A stretch of DNA of 64,000 bases, taken from positions 250,001-314,000 of IMG/VR virus record IMGVR_UViG_3300048591_000147. The stretch is one strand, 5' to 3'. This document shows positions 8,980 to 50,604 of this stretch, one piece after another (position 1 is the first letter of the stretch; each line of letters starts with the position of its first letter). Under the pieces are notes generated by a model, which made no database searches, was not told the origin of the DNA, and was given only the letters and a program-made list of their open reading frames with translations. A program made the translations under genes and the position numbers. The DNA is from a virus.

Positions 8980-9440
8980 GTATCTTAGACGTCTTAAATG
9001 ACGACCTATCCAATATAAATCAGGTTTTATCCGCATATGGTGATCTTTTCACGGAAGCAAAAGCGGACATATCAATCAATAATAAAACCTTGCAACAAGC
9101 TAACATGGAACAGCCATCAAACTATGCCAGATTCGATCAGATAAGGGTTGAGTTAGAGATCATAATGGAACTAGCTGATCTAAAGGTTAGCCAAGTAAGA
9201 GCGCAGGCAATGCGTCAGATTATAAAGGATGACTCAAAGCATTATGGTGAGCGTATGTTGGACAAGATGATTGATGAGAATCCATCTTACTTAAAGTATT
9301 ATAAAATTTACTTAAGGTGTAAAGAGATGTATACGAAATCAAAGTCCATCGTGGAATCAATGTCTCAGAGAGGATATTCTCTTAACAATATAACAAAGAT
9401 TAAGGTAGCAGCATTGGAAGATACTGTACTGTATGATTAA
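8976..9440 (+). CDS. uvsY: UvsY-like recombination mediator
   Basis: 154 residues (T4 UvsY has 137). UvsY loads UvsX on gp32-coated ssDNA. The protein is all-helical and charged; the C-terminal part (YYKIYLRCKEMYTKSKSIV, then QRGYSLNNITKIKVAALE) lines up with the T4 UvsY end, where a helix is followed by 'kSRGfaIkhIqdmraFe'. Position between uvsX and uvsW supports the call. Overlaps uvsW by eight bases. The similarity is remembered, not computed. Confidence 0.65.
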   Translation: MSILDVLNDDLSNINQVLSAYGDLFTEAKADISINNKTLQQANMEQPSNYARFDQIRVELEIIMELADLKVSQVRAQAMRQIIKDDSKHYGERMLDKMIDENPSYLKYYKIYLRCKEMYTKSKSIVESMSQRGYSLNNITKIKVAALEDTVLYD

Positions 9441-10941
9441 GACTGTTACCGTAACATATTTGGATGAAGTTAGATGTTTGTTCAGTGGTATAGCGCCAGA
9501 CCACATGAAAACGCTGTGGCAGGAATATGGTATATTCGCGCCTAAGTATTTCTTTAATCCAAATTACAAACTGAAACGATGGGATGGTAAGAAGCGATTC
9601 TTTAGTGAGACTGGGATAACATTTATAACGCTATTACCAGAAATAATAGAGTTCTTACAGCAGCAGGGATATACCAGCTTTGCTGTTAGAGATAAGCGCA
9701 AGAAATTTGAAATAGAACTAGAACATATCACCGCAGATTATTTTTCACATAAACAGATAACCTTAGCAGACCATCAAGTTGCAGCCATTAATGCGCTGTT
9801 TGATAACTATGGTGGAGTATTGAGAGCGGGTACGGGTGCTGGTAAAACCATAATAACCGCCGCACTGTGTGATAAATTTAATCAAAAAAATCTCAATGCC
9901 ATTGTTATCGTACCAAACTATGATCTGGTGCTACAGACAGTTGCCGCGTTTCAGCGATGTGGTGTAGATGTCGGTGAATTTTCTGGAAAGAAAAAAGACG
10001 TCGAGCATGCCAATGTCATAAGTACTTGGCAGGCATTGCAAAACAATTCCGATGTATTGAAGTTATTCAATGTTTTGATATTGGATGAATGTCAAGGTAT
10101 TGGCGGAAACGTATTACAGAAGCTTATCACAGAAGACGGCAAACACATGCCAATTCGCATTGGTATGACTGCAACGATTCCAGACGATGAATGTAATCGC
10201 TTAACCCTTAAATGTAACATAGGCGATATCGTATATGAAGTTACCGCTGGAGAGTTGATAGAAAAGGGTTGGTTGTCTGATGTCCATATTAATTGCATAA
10301 CTCTTAAAGAGGATCTTACATATGAATATAAAAAATTCAAAAGAGACAATCCAGAAGCTGACATCTCATATGCTGAATATTTTGATGGATACTTTCCAGA
10401 CTTCGCATCTGAAATGGGATACTGTGTCAAGAGTGAGAATAGAAACTTAAAAATATCTGAGTTGGTCACTAATTGTATTGATAATACGGGCAACGTGCTA
10501 ATAATACTTAACTCCGTCAAACACGGAAAACATTTAGAACATTTAATACCCGGATCAGTATTCGTATATGGAAGCACCAAAACGAAAGATCGCACAAGGA
10601 CGTATGCTTCCTATAAGGATAATGATAACATCATTATGATTAGTACATATAAGCTGGTGCAGGCTGGACTAGATGTTCCACGAATCTATAATTTATTCCT
10701 GATAGATGCTGGAAAGAGTTTCGTCCGCACCGTTCAATCTATTGGTAGAGGATTGAGAAAGGCTGAAGACAAAGTACACATCGAAGTGTTTGATATACAC
10801 TCCAATTTTAAATATTCCACAGAGCATTTGAAAGAGCGAATCAAACATTATAAAGCTGAGAAGTTTCCATATAGTAAAGTTTCCGTAAATTTACCGCCAG
10901 TAACAAGACCAATTATAGATTCCGCTATTGACTTTGATTAA
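9433..10941 (+). CDS. uvsW: UvsW-like SF2 helicase
   Basis: 502 residues, the size of T4 UvsW. It unwinds branched DNA and R-loops, helping the switch from origin to recombination-dependent replication. Walker A RAGTGAGKT (131-139), Walker B/DEAH-type LILDECQGIGG, motif III GMTATIP, and motif VI QSIGRGLRKAEDK with the arginine finger region. The first 100 residues form the small N-terminal DNA-binding domain (KLKRWDGKKRFF is typical). Confidence 0.9.
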   Translation: MIKTVTVTYLDEVRCLFSGIAPDHMKTLWQEYGIFAPKYFFNPNYKLKRWDGKKRFFSETGITFITLLPEIIEFLQQQGYTSFAVRDKRKKFEIELEHITADYFSHKQITLADHQVAAINALFDNYGGVLRAGTGAGKTIITAALCDKFNQKNLNAIVIVPNYDLVLQTVAAFQRCGVDVGEFSGKKKDVEHANVISTWQALQNNSDVLKLFNVLILDECQGIGGNVLQKLITEDGKHMPIRIGMTATIPDDECNRLTLKCNIGDIVYEVTAGELIEKGWLSDVHINCITLKEDLTYEYKKFKRDNPEADISYAEYFDGYFPDFASEMGYCVKSENRNLKISELVTNCIDNTGNVLIILNSVKHGKHLEHLIPGSVFVYGSTKTKDRTRTYASYKDNDNIIMISTYKLVQAGLDVPRIYNLFLIDAGKSFVRTVQSIGRGLRKAEDKVHIEVFDIHSNFKYSTEHLKERIKHYKAEKFPYSKVSVNLPPVTRPIIDSAIDFD

Positions 10942-11774: not shown

Positions 11775-12335
11775 ATGTATTCTGAACTGGCTAATAGGAT
11801 CTTATGGTATGATGGTAAATCGTCAATGGATATTGACGATATAGTGCGTATGATATTGAATAATGAATCTATAGCCGATGTAAATTGTTTAGAATACGAC
11901 TACGAAGTTGAGATGTATAATAAATTGCCTAACTGTGATCTACAAGTCAAGTACGGTAATGAAGACATAAAGGCCGATTGGAACATACCAGACAAGTATA
12001 AAGAAATTAGTCTTCGTGAATATATCTTAGACAAGGCAGCGGCACACAACTTGAATAAAGATCTAGAATACATTAAGAAGAGTAACGAAAGGATAGATTA
12101 CGAATTACGCTTAATATCTGACATGAATTTGGTTGGACTATTTCAATGTATATTGTACTTAATCGATGTATTCATAGAACAAGGCATCGTGTGGGGAGTT
12201 GGGCGCGGTAGCTCATGCGCTAGTTATATATTGTATCTGATGGATCTCCATTGTGTAGATTCGATTCAATACGATATACCAGCGAACGAGTTCTATAAAG
12301 AAGTTATAAATAAGGTACACAATGAAGGCGAATAA
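11775..12335 (+). CDS. DnaE-like fragment 1 (GRGS region of a C-family polymerase)
   Basis: 186 residues. The C-terminal third reads IVWGVGRGSSCASYILYLM...CVDSIQYDIPANEFYKE. This matches the bacterial DNA polymerase III alpha line 'GvGRGSgAGSLVAYaLgItdlDPl.ydllFERFLN' that starts the palm. The following PDFDVD motif, which holds two of the catalytic aspartates, is absent because the protein ends first. The remaining N-terminal part is not recognised. A second gene at 20342 resembles the later part of the same polymerase. A non-catalytic remnant or a partner of the replisome is likely. Confidence 0.6.
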   Translation: MYSELANRILWYDGKSSMDIDDIVRMILNNESIADVNCLEYDYEVEMYNKLPNCDLQVKYGNEDIKADWNIPDKYKEISLREYILDKAAAHNLNKDLEYIKKSNERIDYELRLISDMNLVGLFQCILYLIDVFIEQGIVWGVGRGSSCASYILYLMDLHCVDSIQYDIPANEFYKEVINKVHNEGE

Positions 12336-12340
12336 GAGAT

Positions 12341-12730
12341 ATGAGTAAGAAAATTGTAAAGTCATTACGTGGTGAAGATGTGGATTTTGATATGCTGCGT
12401 ATTAAGTCTGATTTAGGCGCGATACCTGAAACCGCAGACGTAAAGTTCAGAGAGAATATTATTCAATCTAGACGTAGAAGAAAGAATTCTTCTAAGCGAA
12501 AAGTCAAAGACATGCTGGCTCAGCAACAGATTAATCAAAAGGCTGTTATGATAGGGCTAGAAAAGCAGCGCAAACAGCGTGCAGACGAAGGCGTTAAACC
12601 TGTCGATGAGTTAGCGGTTCCAGTACTTGAGCTTGACACAAGTGTGGTAGATACCGAGAGTACAGAAACAAAAGAAAACTTCAATAGAAAAATAAGGAAA
12701 AATCAATCTAATGGACCTATCAGCGATTAA
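12341..12730 (+). CDS. Basic, disordered unknown protein
   Basis: 129 residues. A strongly basic block (SRRRRKNSSKRKVKDML) and a Gln/Lys-rich helix (AQQQINQKAVMIGLEKQRKQR) suggest nucleic-acid contact; the C-terminal third is acidic and Thr/Ser-rich. No family recognised. It overlaps the GroES-like gene by 20 bases. Confidence 0.6.
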   Translation: MSKKIVKSLRGEDVDFDMLRIKSDLGAIPETADVKFRENIIQSRRRRKNSSKRKVKDMLAQQQINQKAVMIGLEKQRKQRADEGVKPVDELAVPVLELDTSVVDTESTETKENFNRKIRKNQSNGPISD

Positions 12731-13019
12731 GAATCATATATTATTTGAGTTTAGTGATCAAGTAATTAATAAAGCGTTTGCAAATGAAACAACTTGGGGC
12801 TTCACAGTTTTAGATAGAAATGAAGACGTTAAGTTGGCGAGATGGGCTAAGGTTTTGGCTTGTGGACCAGATGTCAATTCAGACATCAACGTAGGTGATT
12901 ATATTTACATAGAGCCATTAGCATGGACTACTAAAGTAGCAATCAACAAGAAGGATTACTGGATGACCAATGATACGAAGGTATTATTAGTATCCGATGA
13001 GTTACCCAAAGCACTTTAA
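12711..13019 (+). CDS. GroES-like co-chaperonin candidate (gp31-like)
   Basis: 102 residues, the size of GroES (97) and T4 gp31 (111). The run WAKVLACGPDVNSDINVGDYIYI follows the GroES core 'g.VvavGpG......vkvGD.Vlf', and LVSDELPKAL fits the final strand. gp31 lets host GroEL fold the large gp23 capsid protein. The roof beta-hairpin and mobile loop are hard to place, so the call is moderate. A terminator follows at once, ending this gene run. Confidence 0.5.
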   Translation: MDLSAIKNHILFEFSDQVINKAFANETTWGFTVLDRNEDVKLARWAKVLACGPDVNSDINVGDYIYIEPLAWTTKVAINKKDYWMTNDTKVLLVSDELPKAL

Positions 13020-13033
13020 CATTGTTTAACATA

Positions 13034-13078
13034 ATTAGCCCCCTAGATTGATAACTCTTTCTAGGGGGCTAATTTATT
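13034..13078 (+). terminator. Strong intrinsic terminator
   Basis: ATTAGCCCCCTAG (13034-13046) pairs fully with 13061-13073, with a 14-base loop and a T-rich tail. It ends the uvsX-to-GroES gene run. Confidence 0.85.
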
Positions 13079-13096
13079 GTAAAGTCCGTTTATGTA

Positions 13097-13126
13097 TTGA
13101 CATATATGTCCCGGATATTGTAAAGT
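13097..13126 (+). promoter_or_regulatory. Sigma70-like promoter for the clamp-loader genes
   Basis: TTGACA (13097-13102), 18-base spacer, TAAAGT (13121-13126). It lies just after a terminator and 29 bases before the gp44-like ATG, whose leader holds AGAGAG as ribosome site. Confidence 0.5.
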
Positions 13127-13154
13127 ACTCTCCACAATGTAGAGAGATAACTGA

Positions 13155-14105
13155 ATGAGTAAGAAAATATGGTCATTGTCATATAGACCACGCAAAATAG
13201 AAGATTATGTATTTTCATCACAACATACCAAAGATATAATCGAAGGCTTCATCAAAAACAAGAGCATCCCACACCTAATGTTTTATGGTAGTCCGGGGAC
13301 TGGTAAGACTACTTTGGCGTTCTTACTAAAAGAATATCTTGGGGTGGACGACTCAGACTTTCTTTTCCTGAATGCATCGAAAGATAATTCGGTCGATGTA
13401 ATAAGAACACGAGTAACAGACTTTATAACTACGTGCTGTATATCAGAGTCTGGATTCAAAATAGTGTTATTGGATGAAGGTGATGCACTGACTAAAGCCG
13501 CTCAAGACACATTGAGATCAATGATGGAGACTTATGAGGATAACGCTAGATTCATCCTCTGCTGTAATTATCCACACAAGATAACCGACCCACTAAAGTC
13601 AAGATTTCAGGGTATTGAATTCAACTCAATCGACAAAGAACAGATGTTCGTCAAGACGGTTGAAATCCTCCAACAGGCTGGTGTCACTATAGACGAATCT
13701 ACGTTAGACATTGTGGAAAAACAGCTAATAGCAGATTATCCAGATTTCCGAAAGTTGCTAAACAGCTTACAGAAGAACACCATTAACAATGTGTTGGTTG
13801 ACTGTGAACAGGCGGAAGACGCATCCATGATGGATAAGATAACGCTGTTTGACATCGTTACTGCGACAAGTGCCATAGACTGGTCAAACGTTAGAGATAA
13901 TGTCGTGACCAATATCAGTGACTCCGACTTCCTAGAATATTATCGATTCTTCTATGACCATCTACACGAGTCTGACAAGTTTAAGGACGTGAATAAATGG
14001 AAAGCCGGGATAGTCATCATAGCTGATCACCTATATAAGCACTCGCTTGTGGCTGATCAAGAAATAAATTTCACGGCAATGTTAGTACGAATTAACGGAG
14101 TATAA
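13155..14105 (+). CDS. 44: Clamp loader large subunit (gp44-like AAA+ ATPase)
   Basis: 316 residues (T4 gp44 has 319). It opens and loads the sliding clamp at primer ends. Opening motif SYRPRKIEDYV is typical of clamp loaders; Walker A GSPGTGKT (45-52); Walker B IVLLDEGDALT; sensor 1 and arginine-finger region ILCCNYPHKITDPLKSRF (the SRC/SRF motif). It is followed by a small zinc protein and the gp62-like gene, so the loader operon is complete here; the clamp gene itself (gp45) is not in the window. Confidence 0.92.
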   Translation: MSKKIWSLSYRPRKIEDYVFSSQHTKDIIEGFIKNKSIPHLMFYGSPGTGKTTLAFLLKEYLGVDDSDFLFLNASKDNSVDVIRTRVTDFITTCCISESGFKIVLLDEGDALTKAAQDTLRSMMETYEDNARFILCCNYPHKITDPLKSRFQGIEFNSIDKEQMFVKTVEILQQAGVTIDESTLDIVEKQLIADYPDFRKLLNSLQKNTINNVLVDCEQAEDASMMDKITLFDIVTATSAIDWSNVRDNVVTNISDSDFLEYYRFFYDHLHESDKFKDVNKWKAGIVIIADHLYKHSLVADQEINFTAMLVRINGV

Positions 14106-14106
14106 G

Positions 14107-14430
14107 ATGTCAAATTTAGAAGATACATATAAAAAAGATATAGATCCAGCCAAGCTGAAAATCATACGCTCTCATATGGAGAAGGCAGATATACTGTCAT
14201 GGCGTCGTAAGAAAGAAAAAATGGAAAAGATGATTGAAGAGGAAATTCAACCAATAGAAGACGACATCTTAGCTTTGATACTTAAAAAGCAACCGTATAT
14301 GGATGAACTACTCGGCCTTCGTTCTACCATGGTAGAAACGTGTATCCATCCAGAAGATCTTTTAGTGGAATATGATGACGGTACACTGTTTTGCAACTTT
14401 TGTAATAAGAGACTGAAAATTCATGGCTAA
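14107..14430 (+). CDS. Small protein with C-terminal zinc ribbon
   Basis: 107 residues. A charged helical N-terminal part (SWRRKKEKMEKMIEEEIQ) is followed by a C-terminal zinc-ribbon pattern: TCIHPEDLL, then FCNFCNKRLK. It starts one base after gp44 and overlaps gp62 by eight bases, so it is likely made with the clamp loader. Function unknown. Confidence 0.65.
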   Translation: MSNLEDTYKKDIDPAKLKIIRSHMEKADILSWRRKKEKMEKMIEEEIQPIEDDILALILKKQPYMDELLGLRSTMVETCIHPEDLLVEYDDGTLFCNFCNKRLKIHG

Positions 14431-14863
14431 AAAAATAGACATATTCGAAGTATTGAGAAAGATAGATGCTTGCGATATTGCTTATTTTCAGAATCTGGAT
14501 GAAGAGGAAATGAAATCTGTTCAACCATTAGTTATCATGCGATGGATGTCAGGGACGAAAGATTCAACACAGATTCAAAGGATCAATGCGCTTACTAACT
14601 CATTCGTGTTCTCTTTGCAGAAAGAGAAAATGCTGTTAATAAAGTTGTTGATGGCGTCTTCCACTTCTAAGAAAACGTACAAGTGGTATGGTAAGAAGTC
14701 TTCAGTCATTCTCCCTAAATCAAACGTGGAGATTGTCATGGACTATTACACATGTTCGAAGAAAGAGGCTGTAGAAGCTGTTAAACTGCTGAGTAAGGAT
14801 GATATACTAGCGCTAGCGATTGAGTTGGGTTACCAAAAAGAAGATATGACTGGTATAAAATGA
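14423..14863 (+). CDS. 62: Clamp loader small subunit (gp62-like)
   Basis: 146 residues (T4 gp62 has 187). The pattern IFEVLRKID...QPLVIMRWMSG...INALTNSFVFSLQKEKMLLIKLL...KTYKWYGKK matches the phage clamp-loader A subunit family: an N-terminal helix, a 'p.i..r.ls' segment, a short 'mN..f' helix and a basic KRY/KKW patch. Placement one gene after gp44 supports it. The call is by pattern; the sequence of this family varies widely. Confidence 0.65.
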   Translation: MAKKIDIFEVLRKIDACDIAYFQNLDEEEMKSVQPLVIMRWMSGTKDSTQIQRINALTNSFVFSLQKEKMLLIKLLMASSTSKKTYKWYGKKSSVILPKSNVEIVMDYYTCSKKEAVEAVKLLSKDDILALAIELGYQKEDMTGIK

Positions 14864-15531
14864 AGATAAAATGTGATTTTTGTGAGTACGTTTTTAAAAG
14901 CGAACAAGACGGTAAAGATCATTCTTGTAAATATTCCGAACGCTTCCAGAAAGTAAGGACGCTTACCGGGCTATTGGCCTTCGATTTGTATAAATCGTGG
15001 AGGCAAAAGAAGGGGTTCTTCACTGGTGACGAATCGACCTTTATCATGTCAAAATATTTTACGGTATTCTTTAATCTTGGTGAATTCATGAACAAGAAGT
15101 CCATACCACTGCGCCAGCATTACTTAGACTTCTGTATAAAAGCTACCTTACTGCCCAACAATTGGTATTCAGAAACAGTCTACATGGAATACCTAATGAC
15201 ATTCGACAATGAGGTAGACCCAGAATTACAGTACAAGATTAGTAAGAAGACGATAAACTCATTGGCTGATATGATTGATTGTCAGCCGAATCAGGTTTTA
15301 CACTACCTGAATTTTGATGAAATTGCTAAATTGGTGTATACGAAGAATCTGTCACCATGGTTTTTGCTCTTCAGTAAGGTATTCAATCATATCTATAAAA
15401 ATAAATTAACAAACGAAGAACGTATCCTGTGTGATAGATTGATAAATCGTGATGTATGGGTAGAGAAGTTAAGAGCCAACCGGGAAACTTCACAAACTAT
15501 AATCAATTTGATAAAAGAGGATTCGTTTTAA
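14860..15531 (+). CDS. Zinc-finger protein of unknown function
   Basis: 223 residues. The N-terminus has a C2HC-type finger (MKIKCDFCEYVFKSEQDGKDHSC), after which comes an all-helical body rich in aromatic residues. The start overlaps the gp62-like stop (ATGA). It could be a replication accessory factor because it ends the clamp-loader operon, but nothing in the sequence shows a specific role. Confidence 0.65.
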   Translation: MKIKCDFCEYVFKSEQDGKDHSCKYSERFQKVRTLTGLLAFDLYKSWRQKKGFFTGDESTFIMSKYFTVFFNLGEFMNKKSIPLRQHYLDFCIKATLLPNNWYSETVYMEYLMTFDNEVDPELQYKISKKTINSLADMIDCQPNQVLHYLNFDEIAKLVYTKNLSPWFLLFSKVFNHIYKNKLTNEERILCDRLINRDVWVEKLRANRETSQTIINLIKEDSF

Positions 15532-15542
15532 TCGTAACTGGA

Positions 15543-15563
15543 CATAAATACATCTGATAAATA
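15543..15563 (+). promoter_or_regulatory. Two late-promoter-like elements before the fibre genes
   Basis: CATAAATA (15543-15550) and GATAAATA (15556-15563) lie 21-42 bases before the ATG at 15585. They mark the switch from replication genes to the virion-type genes that follow. Confidence 0.5.
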
Positions 15564-15584
15564 AATAAAATTCAGGGATTTTTA

Positions 15585-17411
15585 ATGGCCAGTTGCAATG
15601 ACAATACATATGTGGTTAGATTTACGGACCCAATCAGAGGCACTATATCAGTTGGTAAGAATGCACTAATCACTGATGAAGCTGACGTTGCGTTTCCGGG
15701 GAAATCTAGATTGGAGTATGGTGAAATTTTCAATGAGAATGTTTTACACATGCTCGAAAATTTCGCATGTTCAGAAGATGAAGCCAACCCCGGTAATCCA
15801 GATTTAGATGTAGCGTATGGTGCATTATTACAACTGCCAGTGTATGGCCAGTTCTGGTTAAATACAACACAAGGTAGATTATATTTTTGGGATGATACTA
15901 ATTGGGTGCCATTTGGATTGTCAGATGACATCTATGGTAACGCTGGTGTTATCTTTAATGGTGAATTCATCCCAGTTCCAGTAAGCCCGGTAACAGGATT
16001 GCCTTTTGACACAGCAGAATGTATGTTCGTTGTTTCACCGTTTTACACACCAGAAGAAACAGATTATATAGAATGCACTGTAAATCGTCTAACTGGACAA
16101 GTGTCATCGCATTATAGACTGGCAAGCGGTGGTGGATTAGTAGATGCTTGTGCAAACTATTTAGTGTTAGCTATCAGAGGTAACGTAAATCTAGGTACGG
16201 ATGCTTGTAGTGTATTAGCAGTTCCAACTGCCACACCGACACCGACACCGACCATAACACCATCTGTGACCACTACAGTAACTCCTACGATCACCCCTAC
16301 GTTGACACCAACAATCACAACAACTGTGACTCCTACAGTTACTCCGACTATTACAATATCTCCATCACCGGGGTCATCGCCAACACCAACACCAACTATT
16401 ACTCCAACTGTGACGCCAACTATATCTGTGACGCCTACTCTTGGATTAACTCCAACTGTGACGCCAACTATATCTGTGACGCCAACTATATCTGTGACGC
16501 CAACTATATCTGTGACGCCAACTATATCGGCGCCAGCAGCGTCACCACCAGCATTAGGACCATTTGGCGCCTCTGCCGGTGGCGGTCTAATATCACCAAG
16601 TTGTGGCGTATATTATCCTTCTACTAGCACACCAATCGGATCTGGTAGTTTGGTTTATAATAGTATTTCGCATATATTAACTGGTAGAGGTTCAGGTGCT
16701 ATAGCAGGTGGAGTAGGTTGCCCTACAACATCTACATATAGTGGTGGTATAACATTTACTGCGTCTGGCGGCACCCGTGTCGGTCCAACTGGGCCGTTCT
16801 ACTCTTGGACATTAACAGGGGTGGCTAGTGGCTCAGCGGCGATTAATGTTACAAAACTTGTTTACGGTGTAAACAATAATAAATGTGGTATCAATGTCAG
16901 TTCGTCTGGACCAGACGGATCATTCGGATCATGGCAAGGTACATTAACATTGGAAGCTAGATCAGCGTTGCATTTGCCGCCTACGCATACATTAGATATA
17001 GATATAGATATAGTTATTAATCACACTGGGGCTACGGCCCTGATAGTGTCTCCATCCATTACAAACACCGATTCTGCTTGTGGGCCAGCACCTGTTTCAG
17101 GTTGGAGACACAGTTTTAGTGGTTCCTTGGGCGGTACAATAACAGGCGGTATTTATCGTGAGATAATAGCTCAATCATTAACAACCTCTCCGGGCTACAC
17201 AATCAATTCTGGGTGGACTGCATCACTAATTGGTAATAATATTGTGAGCCCCGGTTTTACTGGTTATGGACCAACTAATAATTCAGGCGCGTGTGGTGAC
17301 ACCGGAACGATTACGATCTATGTAACGTTCTCGGTGACCGCTACTGATGGATTAGGCAACACAGCAACCAATACACGTCAAGTTCCTATAATATTGCAGA
17401 ACACCCCATAA
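15585..17411 (+). CDS. Fibre/virion surface protein A, Thr/Pro-repeat linker
   Basis: 608 residues. The N-terminal domain (1-210) is shared with the two downstream paralogues: LFG/PGKSRLEYGE, NENVLHMLENFACSEDEANPG, a GQFWLNTTQG line, DDTNWVPFG, and ANYLVLAIRGN. A low-complexity Thr/Pro linker spans about residues 213-315 (TPTPTPTITPSVTTT-type). The C-terminal part (316-608) is a Gly/Ser/Thr-rich beta domain with Cys residues, typical of exposed virion domains. Only this copy has that large C-terminal domain. Probably a displayed fibre or decoration protein; the receptor role is inference. Confidence 0.65.
   Translation: MASCNDNTYVVRFTDPIRGTISVGKNALITDEADVAFPGKSRLEYGEIFNENVLHMLENFACSEDEANPGNPDLDVAYGALLQLPVYGQFWLNTTQGRLYFWDDTNWVPFGLSDDIYGNAGVIFNGEFIPVPVSPVTGLPFDTAECMFVVSPFYTPEETDYIECTVNRLTGQVSSHYRLASGGGLVDACANYLVLAIRGNVNLGTDACSVLAVPTATPTPTPTITPSVTTTVTPTITPTLTPTITTTVTPTVTPTITISPSPGSSPTPTPTITPTVTPTISVTPTLGLTPTVTPTISVTPTISVTPTISVTPTISAPAASPPALGPFGASAGGGLISPSCGVYYPSTSTPIGSGSLVYNSISHILTGRGSGAIAGGVGCPTTSTYSGGITFTASGGTRVGPTGPFYSWTLTGVASGSAAINVTKLVYGVNNNKCGINVSSSGPDGSFGSWQGTLTLEARSALHLPPTHTLDIDIDIVINHTGATALIVSPSITNTDSACGPAPVSGWRHSFSGSLGGTITGGIYREIIAQSLTTSPGYTINSGWTASLIGNNIVSPGFTGYGPTNNSGACGDTGTITIYVTFSVTATDGLGNTATNTRQVPIILQNTP
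16410..16529 (+). repeat. 18-bp tandem repeats coding for the Thr/Pro linker
   Basis: The unit GTGACGCCAACTATATCT occurs at 16410-16427 and four times in a row at 16458-16529 (last base of the last copy differs). Each copy codes V-T-P-T-I-S. Identical in-frame units suggest recent expansion by slippage or recombination, so linker length may vary between isolates. Confidence 0.85.
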
Positions 17412-17431
17412 TTGAGAATGAAGAGAATTAA

Positions 17432-18190
17432 ATGGCATATAATGTAAAATATACAAATAATAACAAACCAGATATAGTGGTGCAAAGCGAGTCTGAATTA
17501 TCAGAATCGCTAAGTGTTAATTTGTTCGGTAGAGCATTTCTAGAATATGGGGAACAATTAAACGAGAGTTTATTAAAACTGTTGGAGAATTGCGCATGCC
17601 CAGAGTTCACTGATAACCCCGGAAGACCCGATTTGGGCAAGGGTCCACGTTTAATAAATCCGGTTGAAGGGCAATTATGGTACAATACAACGCAACAATT
17701 ATTCTTTTATTGGAATGCTTTTGAATGGGTGCCGCTATCAATTCGCTCCGATGTTGCGGCGAATTGGGGTCAAATAGCTCATGGTGAAGTATTACCACGC
17801 CCTGTTAATCTTACTAATAATTATGAGTTTCCATATTCTCAATGTATCTGGATGGTTTCGCCACAAGAAATCCCAACCAGATTCAATTATTATGTGTGCA
17901 CCACAGATAGTGAAGCGGTAGTAACTATGTTATATCGCACAGTTGGTGATGCAGTTCCAACACCGGGAACTGCAAACTATCTAATTATCGGTATTAAGAA
18001 TAACGGTAATACTGGTATTATAGATTGTACGTATGATGTTATTACACCATTGACACCGACCCCAACAGTTACTCCAACCCCTACTTCAACACCAGCGCCA
18101 ACTCCGGGTGAAGGATTCTTCATAATGCTAGAGACTGATGTAGATATCTTATTATTAGAAACTGATGGCGGACTGTTGAAGGAAATATAA
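17432..18190 (+). CDS. Fibre/virion surface protein B, paralogue of A
   Basis: 252 residues. Shares the A-type N-terminal domain: LFGRAFLEYGEQLNESLLK, LENCACPEFTDNPG, GQLWYNTTQQ, FEWVPLS, IAHGEVLPRPV, ANYLIIGIKNN. It ends in a short TPTPTVTPTPTSTP stretch and a 30-residue tail (GEGFFIMLETDVDILLLETD) instead of a large C-terminal domain. Probably an alternative tip or an adaptor form. It arose by tandem duplication. Confidence 0.65.
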   Translation: MAYNVKYTNNNKPDIVVQSESELSESLSVNLFGRAFLEYGEQLNESLLKLLENCACPEFTDNPGRPDLGKGPRLINPVEGQLWYNTTQQLFFYWNAFEWVPLSIRSDVAANWGQIAHGEVLPRPVNLTNNYEFPYSQCIWMVSPQEIPTRFNYYVCTTDSEAVVTMLYRTVGDAVPTPGTANYLIIGIKNNGNTGIIDCTYDVITPLTPTPTVTPTPTSTPAPTPGEGFFIMLETDVDILLLETDGGLLKEI

Positions 18191-18198
18191 GGATAATT

Positions 18199-18369
18199 AT
18201 GTATATAATGGTTAGGGTGACAGACAATATGATCATAGGAAGTGCAAACAATCCTATAAATAAAAAGACTGCCATGGATAGGGGCTACTTGGTATATGAA
18301 CTTAGTAGTTCGGAATATTCCGAAGATTTAATTGGCCAAATATTAGAGAGCTTTGAAGAAAAACAATGA
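18199..18369 (+). CDS. Small 56-residue protein inside the fibre operon
   Basis: Starts MYIMVRVTDNMIIGSANN after a good ribosome site (AAGGATAATT) and ends with an ATGA overlap into the next paralogue, which argues that it is real. The sequence has a beta-hairpin-like start and an acidic helix at the end (SEYSEDLIGQILESFEE). Function unknown. Confidence 0.65.
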   Translation: MYIMVRVTDNMIIGSANNPINKKTAMDRGYLVYELSSSEYSEDLIGQILESFEEKQ

Positions 18370-19148
18370 CAGACTATAATGTGAAATTCACCAATATTGA
18401 TGTACCATCTATATTGCTTGAACCTAAAGACATCAATAAAGATTATGGCGTAACGCTGTTTGGTAGAACTAGGTTACAATATGGTAGGGACATGAATGAA
18501 AATATCCTACACTTGCTTGAGCATTTTGCTTGTAGGGAGGACGCAGACAATCCCGGAAATCCAGATCTAGCATTAGCACTAGATGATGATACGACAGTGA
18601 ACGATTTTCTAGGCAACCCAGTAGAAGGCCAGATATGGTTGAATTCTACTACTGATTCACCATTTTTTTGGGATGGTAGTAGATGGGTTCCATTTGGCAT
18701 GGCCGACGATTACGCCGCTAATTCCGGTAGAATCGCACATGGTGAGCAGATACCGTTACCAGTGAGCGTAACCGGATACGGATTTTCACCACAAGAATGC
18801 GTCTGGATTGTTAGTCCTTCTAATCTGCCAGCAGTTGTAGACTATTTTATTTGTAGAACAGATTCTGAAGCAATAGTAAATATGCAATATAGTCTGACTA
18901 CTAGCGGAGCGCTTATTGATGGTTGCGCGAATTATTTAATTTTTGGATTAAAGCATAATACTAATAATGGCGAATTGCCACCTGATATAACTCCAACTCC
19001 AACACCTTCAGTCACTCCAAATCCTGTTGTTACGCCTTCGGTTACACCCGGCGCAGAATTTATTATATCTGAAGACGAAGATTATTACTTCATTGTGCAG
19101 GAATATACTGCATATGATAGTCAGAACGAATACATAGTACAAGAATAA
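18366..19148 (+). CDS. Fibre/virion surface protein C, paralogue of A and B
   Basis: 260 residues. Same N-terminal domain as A and B: LFGRTRLQYGRDMNENILHL, FACREDADNPG, GQIWLNSTTD, SRWVPFG, IAHGEQIPLPV, ANYLIFGLKHN. A brief TPTPTPSVTPN stretch leads to a tail ISEDEDYYFIVQEY with a repeat (YTAYDSQNEYIVQE). B and C end in different short tails, so the tails may be the variable, partner-binding parts. Confidence 0.65.
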   Translation: MTDYNVKFTNIDVPSILLEPKDINKDYGVTLFGRTRLQYGRDMNENILHLLEHFACREDADNPGNPDLALALDDDTTVNDFLGNPVEGQIWLNSTTDSPFFWDGSRWVPFGMADDYAANSGRIAHGEQIPLPVSVTGYGFSPQECVWIVSPSNLPAVVDYFICRTDSEAIVNMQYSLTTSGALIDGCANYLIFGLKHNTNNGELPPDITPTPTPSVTPNPVVTPSVTPGAEFIISEDEDYYFIVQEYTAYDSQNEYIVQE

Positions 19149-19170
19149 ATAGACATTAAAGGAATATAAA

Positions 19171-19713
19171 ATGCCAAATTTAAGAATCAGTGAATTTACC
19201 TTGAATACCACCTTAAACGGTAGTGAGATAGTTTTAGGGGTGCAATCTGGAAATACAGTCAAAATCAGTATGGATGCAATAAAAACATTCGTCCTTGATG
19301 TAGATGCTTCCAGTATTGGTGATGTTGTAATAGCCGATGTTTTGTTAACAGATGTTAACTCGACAGTTTTGAACATAGCTGTTAATAGTTCTACGATGTA
19401 TCAAATTGATGCGATGCTGTTTATAGAAAACCCAAATACTGACGGGTTAATATTTGATATAGGTGTATATGATTTAACGACAGATATATTTAATATTGGG
19501 TATGTGGGTGGTGCTAGTTTTGGTGTCATGGAGATAGCTGTTCAGGAGGTCATTTCGGATGCTACTGGAATCCCGTTCATCAGAATGAGTGGGATAATAT
19601 CAGTGACTGGAACTGGCGGTACGATGACAGTGACTGCGAGAGTAGATAATAACGTTATAGGCACTACAAGCATTCTCAAGGGTAGCTATATCGTCGCTAC
19701 AAAAATTCAATAA
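19171..19713 (+). CDS. Virion-type beta protein
   Basis: 180 residues, Thr/Val/Ile/Gly-rich with alternating strands (NTVKISMDAIKTFVLDVD, then GIISVTGTGGTMTVTAR). The opening MPNLRISEF...GSEIVLGVQSGNTVKIS resembles the start of many phage head or tail decoration proteins. It follows the three fibre paralogues on the same strand with AAAGGAATAT as ribosome site. The specific role is unknown. Confidence 0.6.
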   Translation: MPNLRISEFTLNTTLNGSEIVLGVQSGNTVKISMDAIKTFVLDVDASSIGDVVIADVLLTDVNSTVLNIAVNSSTMYQIDAMLFIENPNTDGLIFDIGVYDLTTDIFNIGYVGGASFGVMEIAVQEVISDATGIPFIRMSGIISVTGTGGTMTVTARVDNNVIGTTSILKGSYIVATKIQ

Positions 19714-19721
19714 TTTATAAC

Positions 19722-20381
19722 ATGCATATAACAAATCTAGTCGTCAAAACAACCCCATTTAATGAAAATAAAAAATGGGGTGACGCTTTATCTCTGAAAA
19801 TAAGATTATTACAAAATTCTGATTGGGTCTTATTACCAGACTCTTCTGTTTACAATCTGGAAGAATGGGTATTGTGGCGTCAGAAAGTAAAGCAAGTATC
19901 AAGAGAATCATCAGAGTCTCCAGAACAGGCTAAGCAATTACTTACCAAGTTAATGGAGTCTACACCACAGGTTATCAAGCTGGATACTGGTAGTATAGAA
20001 TCATTTAGATTTGAGCTGATAGCTAAAGTAAAATATTACTACAATCGTAAAATAGAGACGCAGTGTATCGATAGTGATCTAATTCCATTATTAGTGAATG
20101 AGCGGTATGAAGAGGCGATAGCATATAAAACAAAATCAAAAATACAGGATTTTGTTTTGATTCTTAATGAAGTGACATCAACTGGAAAAACCGTCAAAGA
20201 AGTGATATCATCCTTTAAAGACGATAAGTTACGCATGAAGTTAATAATAGCGACTAACTACAATGCAATGGTGCGGATGATCGCCTCTATTGAAGGGGCT
20301 AATTTCGAGGAACTTACGTCCATTTATGATAGAGTACGCACATGGATATTGATATCGACATTAAACCAGTTAGTAATCTAA
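19722..20381 (+). CDS. Possible tail/fibre assembly protein
   Basis: 219 residues. Residues 28-55 read LLQNSDWVLLPDSSVYNLEE with W..WR after it, the 'sDW..lpD......W..yRq' signature common in phage tail assembly chaperones. The rest is helical. Placement after fibre-type genes fits assembly. No closer family recognised. Confidence 0.5.
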   Translation: MHITNLVVKTTPFNENKKWGDALSLKIRLLQNSDWVLLPDSSVYNLEEWVLWRQKVKQVSRESSESPEQAKQLLTKLMESTPQVIKLDTGSIESFRFELIAKVKYYYNRKIETQCIDSDLIPLLVNERYEEAIAYKTKSKIQDFVLILNEVTSTGKTVKEVISSFKDDKLRMKLIIATNYNAMVRMIASIEGANFEELTSIYDRVRTWILISTLNQLVI

Positions 20382-20911
20382 CTGACAGGCTATACGGCAC
20401 CAGAGCTTCAACAATAGAAAACAAAGAACTAAAGCCCCACTTAGTAGGATGGTATTTTCAAACCATTCCGGTAGATCATATCACCGGGCTGGCAGCAATA
20501 CCATACAATAAAGCCGAAGAATTAGACTTCAAAAAAATAGACATATTGAACTTGAACTTGTTGAAGTTGTTCGATTCTAGGGCAGAGTTGAAAGCCGTGC
20601 TGGACATAAAACCTAACTGGAAAATGTTAGAACATGAATCCGTAGTTACTAGATTATTTCATATCAAAAATCATTTTGACATCGTGATACGATGTAAGCC
20701 GAAGTCGGTAGAAGACATTGCAGATATATTAGCATTGATTCGTCCGGGCAAAAAAGAACTTTTAGATAAATATTTAAAAGACAAATCGGCTGTAAGACCG
20801 TTGTTGTATGATAAACACCTAGATAGCGATCTACGTAAATCGCATGCGGTGGCATATGCAATGAACATTGTAGTCCAGATGAATCTTATTCAACTAGGAA
20901 TAGATATATGA
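20342..20911 (+). CDS. DnaE-like fragment 2 (C-family polymerase palm/finger region)
   Basis: 189 residues. Three segments follow bacterial DnaE in order: EELDFKKIDILNLNLLKL ('lvKfDFLGLrtLt', third catalytic Asp kept), TRLFHIKNHFDIVIRCKP...IADILALIRPGK ('tavFQLES.gm..l...kP..feDliAl.aLyRPGP') and LRKSHAVAYAMNIVVQMN ('fnKSHsaAYalvsYqtawlK'). The stretch between RPG and KSH is much shorter than in DnaE. With the fragment at 11775 this looks like a split, reduced polymerase III alpha. The two PDxD aspartates are in neither part, so polymerase activity is unlikely. Confidence 0.65.
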   Translation: MDIDIDIKPVSNLTDRLYGTRASTIENKELKPHLVGWYFQTIPVDHITGLAAIPYNKAEELDFKKIDILNLNLLKLFDSRAELKAVLDIKPNWKMLEHESVVTRLFHIKNHFDIVIRCKPKSVEDIADILALIRPGKKELLDKYLKDKSAVRPLLYDKHLDSDLRKSHAVAYAMNIVVQMNLIQLGIDI

Positions 20912-26752: not shown

Positions 26753-27373
26753 ATGATAGAATACCCTTCGATTAGAAACACTGGAAAGTATAAAAGAATT
26801 CCAGTTATGTTGTTTGATAAAGTGGATGGGTCTAACATCCGCGCAAAGTGGACTCGTAAAGGTGGGTTCAAAACGTTTGGAACGCGAACACAGTTAGTCA
26901 ATGAAGACACTCCGTTTTGGGGTGACGTGATCACGCTCTTTAATGAAAGTTTAGCTGATAAATTGAACACCTATTTTAGTAAACTGAAGGCAGATAAACT
27001 GATAGTTTTTGGAGAGTTCTATGGCCATAACTCATTTGCTGGAAGACACGTCGATGAGGCGCATAGTATTGTACCATTTGACGTATATGACGAAAAAATA
27101 AAAGCGTTTATGCCTCCAGAGAAGTTCTACAACGAATTAGGCTCTATAGTTACCATTCCTAAAGTATGGGAGACTAATGTAGAGTTAAATGCTGAACTGA
27201 TTCAAAGTGTTAGATGCGGCTACTATGGGGTATTTGAGGGTGTCATCTGTAAGGGTTTACACCGTGATGGTTCCTTCTCTGGTGGTGTACCAATGTATAA
27301 AATTAAAACAACATCTTACCTTCAGAAATTAAAAGAAACATTCAAACATGACTGGGAGCGATACGCAGAATGA
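26753..27373 (+). CDS. RNA ligase (nucleotidyltransferase superfamily) 1
   Basis: 206 residues. Lysine nucleotidylation motif I FDKVDGSNIRAKW; motif III LIVFGEFYGHNSF; motif IV FEGVICKG; motif V MYKIKT. This is the RNA_ligase core without an added C-terminal domain, shorter than T4 Rnl2 (334). Likely seals RNA breaks, for example tRNAs cut by host anticodon nucleases. It is the first gene after the promoter of this accessory region. Confidence 0.75.
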   Translation: MIEYPSIRNTGKYKRIPVMLFDKVDGSNIRAKWTRKGGFKTFGTRTQLVNEDTPFWGDVITLFNESLADKLNTYFSKLKADKLIVFGEFYGHNSFAGRHVDEAHSIVPFDVYDEKIKAFMPPEKFYNELGSIVTIPKVWETNVELNAELIQSVRCGYYGVFEGVICKGLHRDGSFSGGVPMYKIKTTSYLQKLKETFKHDWERYAE

Positions 27374-29316: not shown

Positions 29317-29340
29317 TGACCGATAGGAGTTATCGTCATG
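29317..29340 (+). promoter_or_regulatory. Leader hairpin of natV: Shine-Dalgarno in the loop
   Basis: TGAC, one unpaired C, GATA, loop GGAGT, TATC, GTCA, with the start codon sharing the final A. The GGAG ribosome site is exposed in the loop and the ATG sits at the foot of the stem. The same element, with CATA/TATG in place of GATA/TATC, precedes two other genes in this region (30421, 32557). Confidence 0.7.
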
Positions 29341-30411
29341 AGTAAAAATAATCAATACAATTACGCAGTATATATTGGAAGGTTTCAACCCTTTCACTTA
29401 GGTCACCTGAACACCATCAAGTCTGCACTGGAAATAAGTAAAAAGCTTATTGTAGTTCTCGGTTCAGCAAATTCCCCACGTACAATCAAATCACCATTCA
29501 CGGTCAACGAAAGAATCGAAATGATTCAGGCATGTCTGACTGGCGAAGAGTGTGATAAAATCACCTTCACTTCCGTAGAAGATCAGCTTTACAACAATGC
29601 TAATTGGGCTGCTTCGGTTTTAAAGACCGTTGGAGAGATCACAAATGGCGATACCTCAATCACATTACTTGGCGCGAAGAAAGATCAGAAGACAGAATCC
29701 TATATAAATTTCTTTAAGCAATGGGACTATACGGAAACAGCAATTCTGAATTCTGCTGGTGGGAAAAATATCGATGCAACAAAAGTTAGAGAATTGTATT
29801 TCTGCGGACACTTACAGTTTGTCAAATCTGCCGTGCCAGATGGAGTATATAATTTCTTAGAAAAGTTCCAAACTAAAGCAGAGTTCCACCCATTGTGCGC
29901 ACAGTACGATGATGCGGTAAACTACGATAAGAAGTTTGCGTCTTTTCCAAAAGAGTATTCATTGAATTTCGTCACCGTTGATGCGATTGTCGTTCAATCT
30001 GGGCATATTCTATTAATCAAGAGAAAGAAGAATCCGGGTAAAGACCTCTGGGCAGTGGTTGGCGGGCATGTTAATCCAGATGAAACACTGGAAGACGCTA
30101 TGATCAGAGAACTTAGAGAAGAGACTGGAATTAAAGTTCCAGAAAAAGTGTTAAGAGGATCGATTGTAGATCGTAAGATATTTGATCATCCTGATCGTTC
30201 ATTGCGTGGAAGGGTATTCATCAAAAACGGTAGAACTATTACTAGTTCTTATTGTATTAAATTAGATGATAACAATGACCTCCCCCGTGTTAGTGGATTG
30301 GACGATGCCGCTGATGCACATTGGTTCACTTTCTCTGAAGTAAGAAATATGAGAAATAAGTTGTTTGAGGATCACTACGATCAAATCTTGTACTTCCTCA
30401 ATCGGTTGTAA
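29338..30411 (+). CDS. natV: Bifunctional NMN adenylyltransferase / Nudix hydrolase
   Basis: 357 residues. The N-terminal half is an NMNAT: GRFQPFHLGH (14-23, nucleotidyltransferase HxGH) and an LGSANSPRT line. It joins NMN and ATP to give NAD+. The C-terminal half (about 205-357) is a Nudix hydrolase with GGHVNPDE...RELREETG, the full Nudix box, probably an ADP-ribose pyrophosphatase. The same fusion exists in phage KVP40 (NatV) and in bacterial NadM-Nudix proteins. With nadV it forms the two-step nicotinamide to NAD+ route (NARP2 type), used by phages against NAD+-depleting defences. A hairpin with the ribosome site in its loop precedes it. Confidence 0.9.
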   Translation: MSKNNQYNYAVYIGRFQPFHLGHLNTIKSALEISKKLIVVLGSANSPRTIKSPFTVNERIEMIQACLTGEECDKITFTSVEDQLYNNANWAASVLKTVGEITNGDTSITLLGAKKDQKTESYINFFKQWDYTETAILNSAGGKNIDATKVRELYFCGHLQFVKSAVPDGVYNFLEKFQTKAEFHPLCAQYDDAVNYDKKFASFPKEYSLNFVTVDAIVVQSGHILLIKRKKNPGKDLWAVVGGHVNPDETLEDAMIRELREETGIKVPEKVLRGSIVDRKIFDHPDRSLRGRVFIKNGRTITSSYCIKLDDNNDLPRVSGLDDAADAHWFTFSEVRNMRNKLFEDHYDQILYFLNRL

Positions 30412-31454: not shown

Positions 31455-32087
31455 ATGAACAACGAATATAAAAAATATCCTCGAACTTTTCACCTACCTT
31501 GGAGTGAAGGTGCAACTAATGATGATAAAATATTAAAAAACGCTGCGCATTTCGAACAGAAGCGAATTATAGTATCTGTCAAGTATGACGGTGAAAATTT
31601 TTCTGGATATTATGATTACATGCATGCGCGTAGTATAGATTCTAAGCATCACCCTAGTAGGGATTGGATCAAAAAGTTTTGGTCAGAGAGGCAAAAAGAT
31701 CTTCCTATTGGATTTCGACTGTGCGGAGAGAATTTGTTTGCAAAGCATTCAATCGAATATAACGATTTGGAATCGTATTTTTATGGTTTCTCCATGTGGG
31801 ATGAGAGTAATACTTGTCTTTCTTGGGACGAGACTGTAGAATGGTTTCAGTTGCTCGGCGTCACCCCGGTGAAAGTTCTGTATGATGGTATCTATGATGA
31901 AAAACTTATCAAACAGTTGTTCGTGAATGACGGGACGATGGAAGGCTACGTGGTAAGACTGGCAGATGCTTTTCGCTATGAAGATTTTGCACAATCTGTA
32001 GCAAAATTCGTTCGTAAGGACCATGTAACTACGGGTACACACTGGATGCACGAAGAAATGGTGTCTAATAAACTAATGCGAGCATAA
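31455..32087 (+). CDS. RNA ligase (nucleotidyltransferase superfamily) 2
   Basis: 210 residues. Motif I SVKYDGENFSGYY, motif III RLCGENLFAKHSI, then YFYGFSMWD, motif IV EGYVVRL and motif V KFVRKDH. It is not close to the ligase at 26753 in sequence, so the phage carries two different RNA-ligase lines. Likely role is nick sealing or tRNA repair. Its stop lies within the downstream terminator stem. Confidence 0.75.
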   Translation: MNNEYKKYPRTFHLPWSEGATNDDKILKNAAHFEQKRIIVSVKYDGENFSGYYDYMHARSIDSKHHPSRDWIKKFWSERQKDLPIGFRLCGENLFAKHSIEYNDLESYFYGFSMWDESNTCLSWDETVEWFQLLGVTPVKVLYDGIYDEKLIKQLFVNDGTMEGYVVRLADAFRYEDFAQSVAKFVRKDHVTTGTHWMHEEMVSNKLMRA

Positions 32088-32556: not shown

Positions 32557-32580
32557 TGACACATAGGAGTTATGGTCATG
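32557..32580 (+). promoter_or_regulatory. Leader hairpin of nadV: Shine-Dalgarno in the loop
   Basis: Same as the 30421 element: TGAC, bulged A, CATA, loop GGAGT, TATG, GTCA. It sits within the predicted 5' leader from the promoter at 32518. Confidence 0.7.
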
Positions 32581-33984
32581 ACAAATCTAAGAAACAATCT
32601 TATCCTCAATCTCGTGGATAGTTACAAAACCAGCCACTTTGGCTTTATGGAAACTGGCACCACAGAAATCTTCTCTTACATTGAGAGTCGCGCTGGTAGC
32701 GAGTACAAAGAAACATTATTCTTCGGTCTTCAGTATTTCTTAAAGGAATATATGCAGACTCCAATCACCATGGAAATGGTGGATCAGGCAGAAAAATTCC
32801 TAACAGCACATGGCGAACCGTTCAATAGAACGGGTTGGGAATATATCGTTAACAACCTTAAGGGTAAAATCCCACTTCAAGTCCGCGCAGTGCCAGAAGG
32901 CACCATTGTAACTGAAGGCAACGTATTAGTTACCTTTGTGAACACTGATCCCAATTGTGCGTGGGTTACCGGATATTTCGAAACAGCGTTTCTTCGCGCG
33001 GTGTGGTATCCGTCCACCGTTGCTACTCGTTCGTTTAATATTAAGCGAACCATTAGCAGTTATCTACAGCGCACCGGTTCTATTGAATCTCTACCATTCA
33101 AGATGATTGACTTTGGTGCACGAGGCGTTTCCAGCCTTGAATCAAGCATGCTAGGTGGTGCTGCGCATTTAGTTAATTTCTTAGGTACTGATAATATTTC
33201 GGGCATCATTTGTTCGATGGATTATTATTATTCCAAGGAAGTTACAGGATTTTCTATCCCTGCGAGTGAGCACAGTGTTACAACAGCATGGGGCAAGAAT
33301 CGGGAAGCAGATTTCTTTTCAAATGCCATTGACGTATATGGTGGTCCCGGAAAACTAATCTCATTGGTTGCAGACTCTTATAGTTTGGAAAACGCCATTA
33401 AAATTATTGGTACAACCTTAAAACAGAAGATTATTGATAATGGGTGCACTATCGTTGTTCGCCCTGATTCTGGTGATCCTGCCAGTATGGTGCTGGTTAC
33501 TGTTAGATTGTTGGACCAGTATTTTGGCTGTAATAAGAATGCTGCTGGATATAACGTGCTGCACAACTCGGTCAGAGTTATTCAAGGTGACGGAATCACC
33601 ATTGAATCCATTAAGGAAATTTTAGATCTTCTGGAAAAGAATGGATACAGTGCCGATAACGTTACTTTCGGATGTGGTGGCTATTTGCTCCAGCAATTGA
33701 ATCGTGATACACAACGATTTGCCATGAAAGCATCCTCAGTCGTAGTTGGTGGTGATCGCAGAAATATTTGTAAGACGCCTAAGACTGATATGTCCAAGCA
33801 GTCTAAATCTGGTCGCTTGGCATATGTCAAATTTATCGGTCAAGATATTAAGCGTACCATTACTGTCGAACAGTTTGATCCAACCATCCACGAAGATTTG
33901 ATGGAAACTGTTTACAGAGATGGTGAGATTTTGAAAGTGTATACGTTTGACGAAGTTAGGGCGAATGCAACCAAGAGTTTATAA
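32578..33984 (+). CDS. nadV: Nicotinamide phosphoribosyltransferase
   Basis: 468 residues; start at 32578 set by the leader hairpin. It makes NMN from nicotinamide and PRPP, the first step of the two-step route to NAD+. Segments typical of NAMPT/NadV: LVDSYKTSHFGFM at the start, MIDFGARGVSSLESS, then VVRPDSGDPASMVLV and VIQGDGITIES, with the active-site His in SEHSV. Length equals that of KVP40 NadV and animal NAMPT (about 490). NatV at 29338 completes the pathway. Confidence 0.95.
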   Translation: MTNLRNNLILNLVDSYKTSHFGFMETGTTEIFSYIESRAGSEYKETLFFGLQYFLKEYMQTPITMEMVDQAEKFLTAHGEPFNRTGWEYIVNNLKGKIPLQVRAVPEGTIVTEGNVLVTFVNTDPNCAWVTGYFETAFLRAVWYPSTVATRSFNIKRTISSYLQRTGSIESLPFKMIDFGARGVSSLESSMLGGAAHLVNFLGTDNISGIICSMDYYYSKEVTGFSIPASEHSVTTAWGKNREADFFSNAIDVYGGPGKLISLVADSYSLENAIKIIGTTLKQKIIDNGCTIVVRPDSGDPASMVLVTVRLLDQYFGCNKNAAGYNVLHNSVRVIQGDGITIESIKEILDLLEKNGYSADNVTFGCGGYLLQQLNRDTQRFAMKASSVVVGGDRRNICKTPKTDMSKQSKSGRLAYVKFIGQDIKRTITVEQFDPTIHEDLMETVYRDGEILKVYTFDEVRANATKSL

Positions 33985-49899: not shown

Positions 49900-50604
49900 A
49901 TGAAGTACGATGATTTTGGCAACAGAATGAAAAAATATGAAGCGGTAAGCCAATCGGTCTTGACCACAAGAACGCCAGTTATTATGCGTCTTGATGGCTG
50001 CGCATTCCACACATTTACTAAAGGGTTGAACAGACCGTTTGATTCAGTTTTAAGTGATGCTATGGCAGCGACTACCGAACACTTGTGTAGTAAGATCCAA
50101 GGTGCTGTCTTTGGTTATATGCAATCAGATGAAATATCGATCTTGATTCAAGACTGGAAAAATCTGAATACTGATAATTGGTTTGGAAACAATGTCCAGA
50201 AGATGGTGAGTGTTTCCGCGAGCATTGCAACAGCATTCTTTAATAAGACTTATAAGCACCCCTCCAAGGATGCTTTGGCACTATTTGATTCAAGAGTGTT
50301 TAACATTCCCAAAGAGGAAGTCGCTAACTATTTCGTATGGCGCCAGAAAGATTGTACTAGAAATAGTATTAACTCTTTAGGGCAGGCGCACTTTTCAGCT
50401 AAACAGTTACACGGAAAGAATGTTTCACAGGTTCAAGATATGTTGATGGAAACACATAATGTCAACTGGAATGATATCCAAACGCGCTATAAGCGTGGGA
50501 CGTGTGTTGTCAATGGCGTGATTGACTTGGAATGCCCGATCTTTACGCAGGATAGGGGTTACATCGAAAAAACATATGAATTTTCTGAAAGTGTGGTTGT
50601 ATAA
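49900..50604 (+). CDS. thg1: tRNA(His) guanylyltransferase-like protein (Thg1/TLP)
   Basis: 234 residues. Reverse 3'-5' polymerase fold: MRLDGCAFHTFTKGL (RLDG, Asp 32) and GYMQSDEISIL (SDE 76-78) give the metal aspartates; VWRQKDCTRNSIN and QAHFSAKQLHG are family motifs. Thg1 adds G-1 to tRNA(His); bacterial and phage relatives (TLPs) repair 5'-truncated tRNAs. With two RNA ligases and a kinase nearby, tRNA repair is the likely role. Confidence 0.85.
   Translation: MKYDDFGNRMKKYEAVSQSVLTTRTPVIMRLDGCAFHTFTKGLNRPFDSVLSDAMAATTEHLCSKIQGAVFGYMQSDEISILIQDWKNLNTDNWFGNNVQKMVSVSASIATAFFNKTYKHPSKDALALFDSRVFNIPKEEVANYFVWRQKDCTRNSINSLGQAHFSAKQLHGKNVSQVQDMLMETHNVNWNDIQTRYKRGTCVVNGVIDLECPIFTQDRGYIEKTYEFSESVVV

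What the first reader, a model, noticed from the sequence alone, without database searches (positions are those of the whole stretch)
11775..20911. Split, reduced DnaE-like polymerase in two distant genes
One gene ends with the GRGSS palm line; another, 8 kb away, has the third-Asp line (KIDIL), a VFQLES/RPG-like line and a KSHAVAY line in DnaE order. The PDxD aspartates fall between the two and are missing from both. This looks like a C-family polymerase broken in two and kept for a non-catalytic role, perhaps DNA or clamp binding.
Basis: partly seen in the sequence, partly recalled or inferred. Interest (0 to 1): 0.7.

Follow-up and report, generated by a model that had tools for sequence, protein, structure and literature searches.

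The report
Two-gene minimal phage DNA polymerase III
A giant T4-like virus of bacteria carries, in two separate genes, the stripped-down core of a bacterial-type DNA polymerase with all its catalytic residues still in place; this split enzyme was already described in related giant phages in 2021, but nobody has shown what it does.

Summary
The two genes are real pieces of a C-family (Pol III alpha) polymerase. Gene A (11775-12335) matches E. coli DnaE residues 276-398; gene B (20342-20911) matches 401-783 in sequence motifs and predicted fold. Together they tile the palm and part of the fingers without overlap.

The PDxD aspartates are present: B begins M-D-I-D-I-D. Both aspartates, the third aspartate (D67), the lysine beside it (K65) and B's His33 are invariant in 87 B proteins. 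GRGSS is conserved in the A proteins, though those were collected partly by that motif. So a dead, non-catalytic relic is unlikely.

What is missing is the PHP domain, the thumb, the clamp-binding C-terminus and the fingers' LRRAMGKK segment, so activity is inferred, not shown. All 19 phage records over 140 kb that I checked carry both halves, once each, on one strand. All 12 of those tested for it also carry a family-B polymerase, and this phage's own is intact.

Iyer et al. 2021 (PMC7824862) already described this split minimal Pol III and proposed that the halves reassemble. This is a new member of that known kind.

The parts
11775..12335 (+). Gene A: N-terminal half, 186 aa. Residues 67-181 match the start of the DnaE palm (E. 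coli 276-398); residues 1-66 are a phage-specific N-terminal segment with no known match
   Evidence: PF07733 1.3e-12; phrog_11127 'DNA polymerase' 1.9e-38; model pLDDT 93.4, VIA Z 11.5 to 2hnh and 12.9 to 5lew; hhalign to E. coli DnaE 272-396, E 1.9e-9
12201..12215 (+). GRGSS, residues 143-147 of A; R144 corresponds to E. coli R362
   Evidence: invariant in 64 A proteins, though the collection pattern included GRGSS; also invariant in the 8; DNA read
20342..20911 (+). Gene B: C-terminal half, 189 aa. Second part of the palm plus reduced fingers, matching E. coli 401-783 with two large deletions
   Evidence: PF17657 1.1e-6; phrog_11778 'DNA polymerase' 1.9e-58; model pLDDT 93.7, VIA Z 10.8 over 180 residues of 2hnh
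20345..20359 (+). DIDID: the PDxD catalytic aspartates (D2, D4 correspond to E. coli D401, D403) at the N-terminus of B
   Evidence: DNA; invariant D2, D4, D6 in 87 B proteins; aligned with PDFDVDF
20438..20440 (+). His33, the H of the DnaE KHAGG line
   Evidence: invariant; aligned
20534..20542 (+). K65-I-D67: lysine and third catalytic aspartate (E. coli K553, D555)
   Evidence: invariant K65, D67; aligned
20741..20746 (+). R134-P135 of the fingers RPG line (E. coli 639-640)
   Evidence: invariant; hhalign
20837..20857 (+). KSHAVAY line
   Evidence: H168 and Y172 invariant; the pattern that collected these sequences included this line
9433..10941 (+). UvsW-like helicase, a replication-cluster neighbour
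13155..14105 (+). T4 gp44-like clamp loader, 0.8 kb after A
   Evidence: phrog_168 2.8e-72
14423..14863 (+). T4 gp62-like clamp-loader small subunit
   Evidence: phrog_225 1.4e-7

Best explanation
A and B are the two subunits of a minimal C-family polymerase core that assembles in trans. A supplies the first part of the palm with the GRGSS nucleotide-binding turn. B supplies DxD, the K-x-D third aspartate and a shortened fingers region. The split lies in the loop just before PDxD. The complex probably performs metal-dependent nucleotidyl transfer as an accessory (repair, gap-filling or second-strand) enzyme beside the phage's intact T4-type family-B replicase. Shown: homology, complementary halves, intact catalytic residues, co-occurrence, intact PolB. 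Inferred: that A and B bind each other, that the complex is active, and its role.
For: Profile matches. Fold matches that tile DnaE as 276-398 and 401-783. D2, D4, D67, K65 and H33 invariant in 87 B proteins at mostly 37-51% identity to B, although the collection pattern (the KSHA line) did not select for them. R144 invariant in A. All 19 virus records over 140 kb checked have one A and one B on the same strand, about 6 to 224 kb apart where both positions were read, and 8 kb in the window: the window's, the 10 named phages and contig G003, and G016-G022. PolB is found in all 12 of these that were searched for it, and the window phage's own PolB has intact DVNSLYPS, KLNSTYG and GDTDS motifs. 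A lies in the UvsX-UvsY-UvsW-gp44-gp62 cluster. Iyer et al. 2021 reached the same conclusion independently.
Against: B lacks the thumb and the fingers' LRRAMGKK segment (E. coli R709/R710), which I recall as contacting the incoming nucleotide in DnaE. No clamp-binding or PHP domain was seen in A or B. No biochemistry was found in the literature searched. The A-B complex could not be modelled here.
Confidence: 0.62

Rival explanations
1. A and B reassemble into a nucleotidyltransferase that is not a templated DNA polymerase, for example a primer-making, end-adding or nucleotide-sensing enzyme. The catalytic core is kept, but the thumb and the fingers' arginines are lost.
For: Catalytic and GRGSS residues are invariant while the thumb and LRRAMGKK are absent from the aligned B proteins.
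Against: B keeps the fingers RPG and KSHA lines, and DnaG-like primases are annotated in many relatives, so a new primase is not required.
Confidence: 0.2
2. A non-catalytic relic used for DNA or clamp binding.
For: The protein is strongly reduced; a complete PolB replicase is present.
Against: PDxD is not missing; all three aspartates and the lysine are invariant in 87 sequences; the clamp-binding C-terminus of DnaE is absent.
Confidence: 0.1
3. A gene recently broken by an insertion, assembly error or decay.
For: The same phage has a DNA ligase that looks split in two, so gene fracture does occur here.
Against: The same split is found in phages of many hosts with very different spacing and either gene order, with intact reading frames in all but one of the long records read (G020's B shows one in-frame TGA).
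Confidence: 0.02
4. The halves are joined after translation (split intein) or after transcription (trans-splicing).
For: Split DnaE joined by an intein is known in cyanobacteria (general knowledge).
Against: A ends within about a dozen residues of its DnaE match and B starts at DxD; neither carries extra intein-sized sequence.
Confidence: 0.03

Closest known systems
Split minimal DNA polymerase III alpha of group 2.2 jumbo phages (Iyer et al. 2021, PMC7824862); PHROGs 11127 and 11778
   Same: Two small proteins from distant genes, the same two halves, in phages with a family-B replicase; direct PHROG matches for both
   Different: Nothing essential; this phage is an additional member, 51-52% identical to Xanthomonas phage XacN1 in B
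Bacterial DnaE (E. coli Pol III alpha)
   Same: Palm fold, GRGS, PDxD, KxD, RPG and KSHA lines
   Different: No PHP domain, thumb, LRRAMGKK segment or beta-binding and C-terminal domains; split before PDxD
Compact single-chain phage Pol III alpha (about 567 aa, L096 and relatives)
   Same: Catalytic C-family core without a PHP domain, about 5 kb from a B gene in some marine phage contigs
   Different: One chain, with the region between DxD and the third Asp, and MYRRAFAKK, retained
Cyanobacterial split DnaE
   Same: DnaE in two genes (general knowledge)
   Different: That one is full-length, joined by a split intein and cut at another place (general knowledge)

Membership tests
Split minimal Pol III alpha of jumbo phages (Iyer et al. 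2021) | N-terminal half (GRGS part) as a stand-alone small protein | tested here: met
   A, 186 aa, phrog_11127 E 1.9e-38
Split minimal Pol III alpha of jumbo phages (Iyer et al. 2021) | C-terminal half (Mg- and template-binding part) as a stand-alone small protein in a distant gene | tested here: met
   B, 189 aa, phrog_11778 E 1.9e-58, 8 kb away
Split minimal Pol III alpha of jumbo phages (Iyer et al. 2021) | Genome over 200 kb that also encodes a T4-type family-B polymerase | tested here: met
   315 kb record with an 880-aa PolB
Split minimal Pol III alpha of jumbo phages (Iyer et al. 2021) | Halves reconstitute an active enzyme | not testable with these tools
   complex prediction and assays not available
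C-family DNA polymerase (DnaE/PolC) | Three catalytic aspartates on a Pol-beta-like palm | tested here: met
   D2, D4, D67 invariant; fold match
C-family DNA polymerase (DnaE/PolC) | Thumb domain and fingers LRRAMGKK segment | tested here: not met
   absent from the aligned B proteins
C-family DNA polymerase (DnaE/PolC) | PHP domain and beta-binding/C-terminal domains | tested here: inconclusive
   not in A or B; a stand-alone gene elsewhere in the genome was not searched for
C-family DNA polymerase (DnaE/PolC) | DNA polymerase activity | not testable with these tools
   no assay; no published assay found

The most novel reading that the evidence does not exclude
A thumb-less C-family core of about 300 residues, assembled from two separately encoded proteins, works as a second, specialised DNA polymerase or nucleotidyltransferase beside a T4-type replicase. 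It would be an exceptionally small active Pol III alpha core and would show that the thumb and fingers arginines are dispensable.
Probability: 0.4. Interest if true: 0.65.

Novelty: new member of a known kind. Interest (0 to 1): 0.3.

Why it matters
C-family polymerases are known mainly as large, single-chain replicases of bacteria. A minimal, two-gene version kept with an invariant active site in many phages that already own a family-B replicase poses a directly testable question: what is the smallest functional Pol III core, and what second DNA-synthesis task do these phages need? The discovery itself was published in 2021; what this case adds is the residue-level evidence against a non-catalytic role and the list of catalytic-region segments that are lost.

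Tried and rejected
Single-sequence search of viral contigs with A found nothing; alignments made from named phages then found hundreds of contigs, of which 80 per half were kept. Profile search of PDB sequences with B alone was weak (E 0.29 at best), as was hhalign of B against one DnaE sequence, so B's membership rests on Pfam, PHROG and fold matches. The idea that marine phages had replaced A by the compact single-chain Pol III was weakened: close relatives of those contigs with about 10 kb of downstream sequence lack the compact gene, so it looks like a sporadic extra gene; whether A lies elsewhere in those fragmentary genomes (at most 91 kb) is not known. A heterodimer prediction could not be run, since a joined chain is not a sequence of the window.

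Full report
Observation. The window is bases 250001-314000 of a 314,956-base virus record. Gene A is 11775-12335 and gene B is 20342-20911, both on the + strand. Pfam places A in the Pol III alpha NTPase (palm) domain (1.3e-12) and B in the Pol III alpha finger domain (1.1e-6). PHROGs gives two families, 11127 and 11778, both already called 'DNA polymerase', at 1.9e-38 and 1.9e-58.

The catalytic motif is not missing. B begins ATG GAT ATT GAT ATC GAC, that is M-D-I-D-I-D. In relatives the same place reads PDIDIDF (Agrobacterium phage Atu_ph07), TDIDIDF (GAP32, 121Q, Phosso) or MPDVDIDF (marine contigs). It aligns with PDFDVDF of E. coli DnaE, where I checked D401, D403, K553, D555, R362, R709 and R710 in the K-12 sequence. 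In 87 B proteins, mostly 37-51% identical to the window's B, the invariant residues include D2, D4, D6, H33, K65, D67, R134, P135, H168 and Y172. Those sequences were collected mainly with a pattern on the KSHA line, so the invariance of the aspartates is not a selection effect; that of H168 and Y172 partly is. In 64 A proteins GRGSS, R106 and E110 are invariant; the GRGSS result is partly a selection effect, because the pattern included it, but it also holds in the smaller set.

Structure. AlphaFold models of A and B are confident (mean pLDDT 93.4 and 93.7). Aligned to solved structures, A residues 67-181 match E. coli DnaE 276-398 (Z 11.5), with the best match at Z 12.9 to 5lew; B residues 1-189 match E. 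coli DnaE 401-783 (Z 10.8, 180 residues aligned, 3.8 A), well above the first unrelated hit at Z 3.5. The two halves therefore tile the polymerase core and are cut in the loop just before PDxD. The first 66 residues of A had no match and were not tested alone.

What is lost. Between DxD and the third Asp B has about 62 residues against about 150 in E. coli, so the thumb is gone. Between the RPG and KSHA lines the LRRAMGKK segment (R709/R710) is also gone; the compact single-chain phage enzyme in L096 keeps MYRRAFAKK there. From general knowledge of DnaE and PolC structures, that segment helps hold the incoming nucleotide, so catalysis by A+B is plausible but not assured.

Distribution. Ten named phages (XacN1, Phosso, PA5oct, Atu_ph07, 121Q, Vibrio 2.275.O, Slickus01, RAS14, GAP32, RaK2) and contig G003 each have one A and one B on the same strand. 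Seven more contigs of 183-462 kb, reached through one half, also carry the other. With the window's own genome that makes 19 of 19 records over 140 kb. Spacing runs from about 6 kb (G003) to 224 kb (Phosso), and either gene can come first. A family-B polymerase is present in all ten named phages, in G003 and in the window phage; G016-G022 were not searched for it. The window phage's own PolB is 880 aa with DVNSLYPS, KLNSTYG and GDTDS motifs.

Surroundings. A sits in a T4-like replication and recombination cluster: gp32-like SSB, UvsX, UvsY-like, UvsW, A, a GroES-like gene, gp44 and gp62. In RaK2-type and marine relatives B lies between UvsW and the primase-helicase genes and is followed by a small gene on the opposite strand; in the window an opposite-strand gene also follows B closely.

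Prior knowledge. Iyer et al. [quoted passage not shown] The phage CBB paper had noted the A protein as a truncated Pol III alpha (PMC5259590). No experimental study was found in the library searched.

Conclusion. The best reading is a two-subunit minimal C-family core with a complete set of metal-binding residues, probably catalytic, of unproven role. It is a new member of a family described in 2021.

Noticed in passing
57098-58213 (+), 58169-59011 (-), 59042-59854 (+): A bacterial-type NAD-dependent DNA ligase appears split in two: adenylation and OB domains in one gene, a BRCT-containing part in the next, with an opposite-strand DUF723 gene between them that may be a homing-type nuclease.
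   Followed up: partly
L072, L079, L084, L093, L096, L120, L125, L213-L290: Some marine phage contigs carry B and, about 5 kb downstream, a compact single-chain Pol III alpha of about 567 aa with no PHP domain; close relatives lack it. No A gene was found in contigs up to 91 kb.
   Followed up: partly
49900-50604 (+): Thg1-like (tRNA-His guanylyltransferase) gene, Pfam 7.3e-31.
   Followed up: no
29338-30411 and 32572-33984 (+): Probable NAD-salvage pair judged by reading the sequence only: a nucleotidyltransferase-Nudix fusion and a nicotinamide phosphoribosyltransferase-like gene.
   Followed up: no
26753-27373 and 31455-32087 (+): Two separate RNA-ligase-family genes.
   Followed up: no
45670-46599 (-): LAGLIDADG homing endonuclease gene.
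   Followed up: no
PA5oct, Atu_ph07, Slickus01, contig G004: The family-B polymerase match falls in two different open frames in these records, so the main replicase may also be split there.
   Followed up: no
contig G020, bases 170779-171345: The B gene of this contig reads through one in-frame TGA, in contrast to the other copies in the long records read.
   Followed up: no
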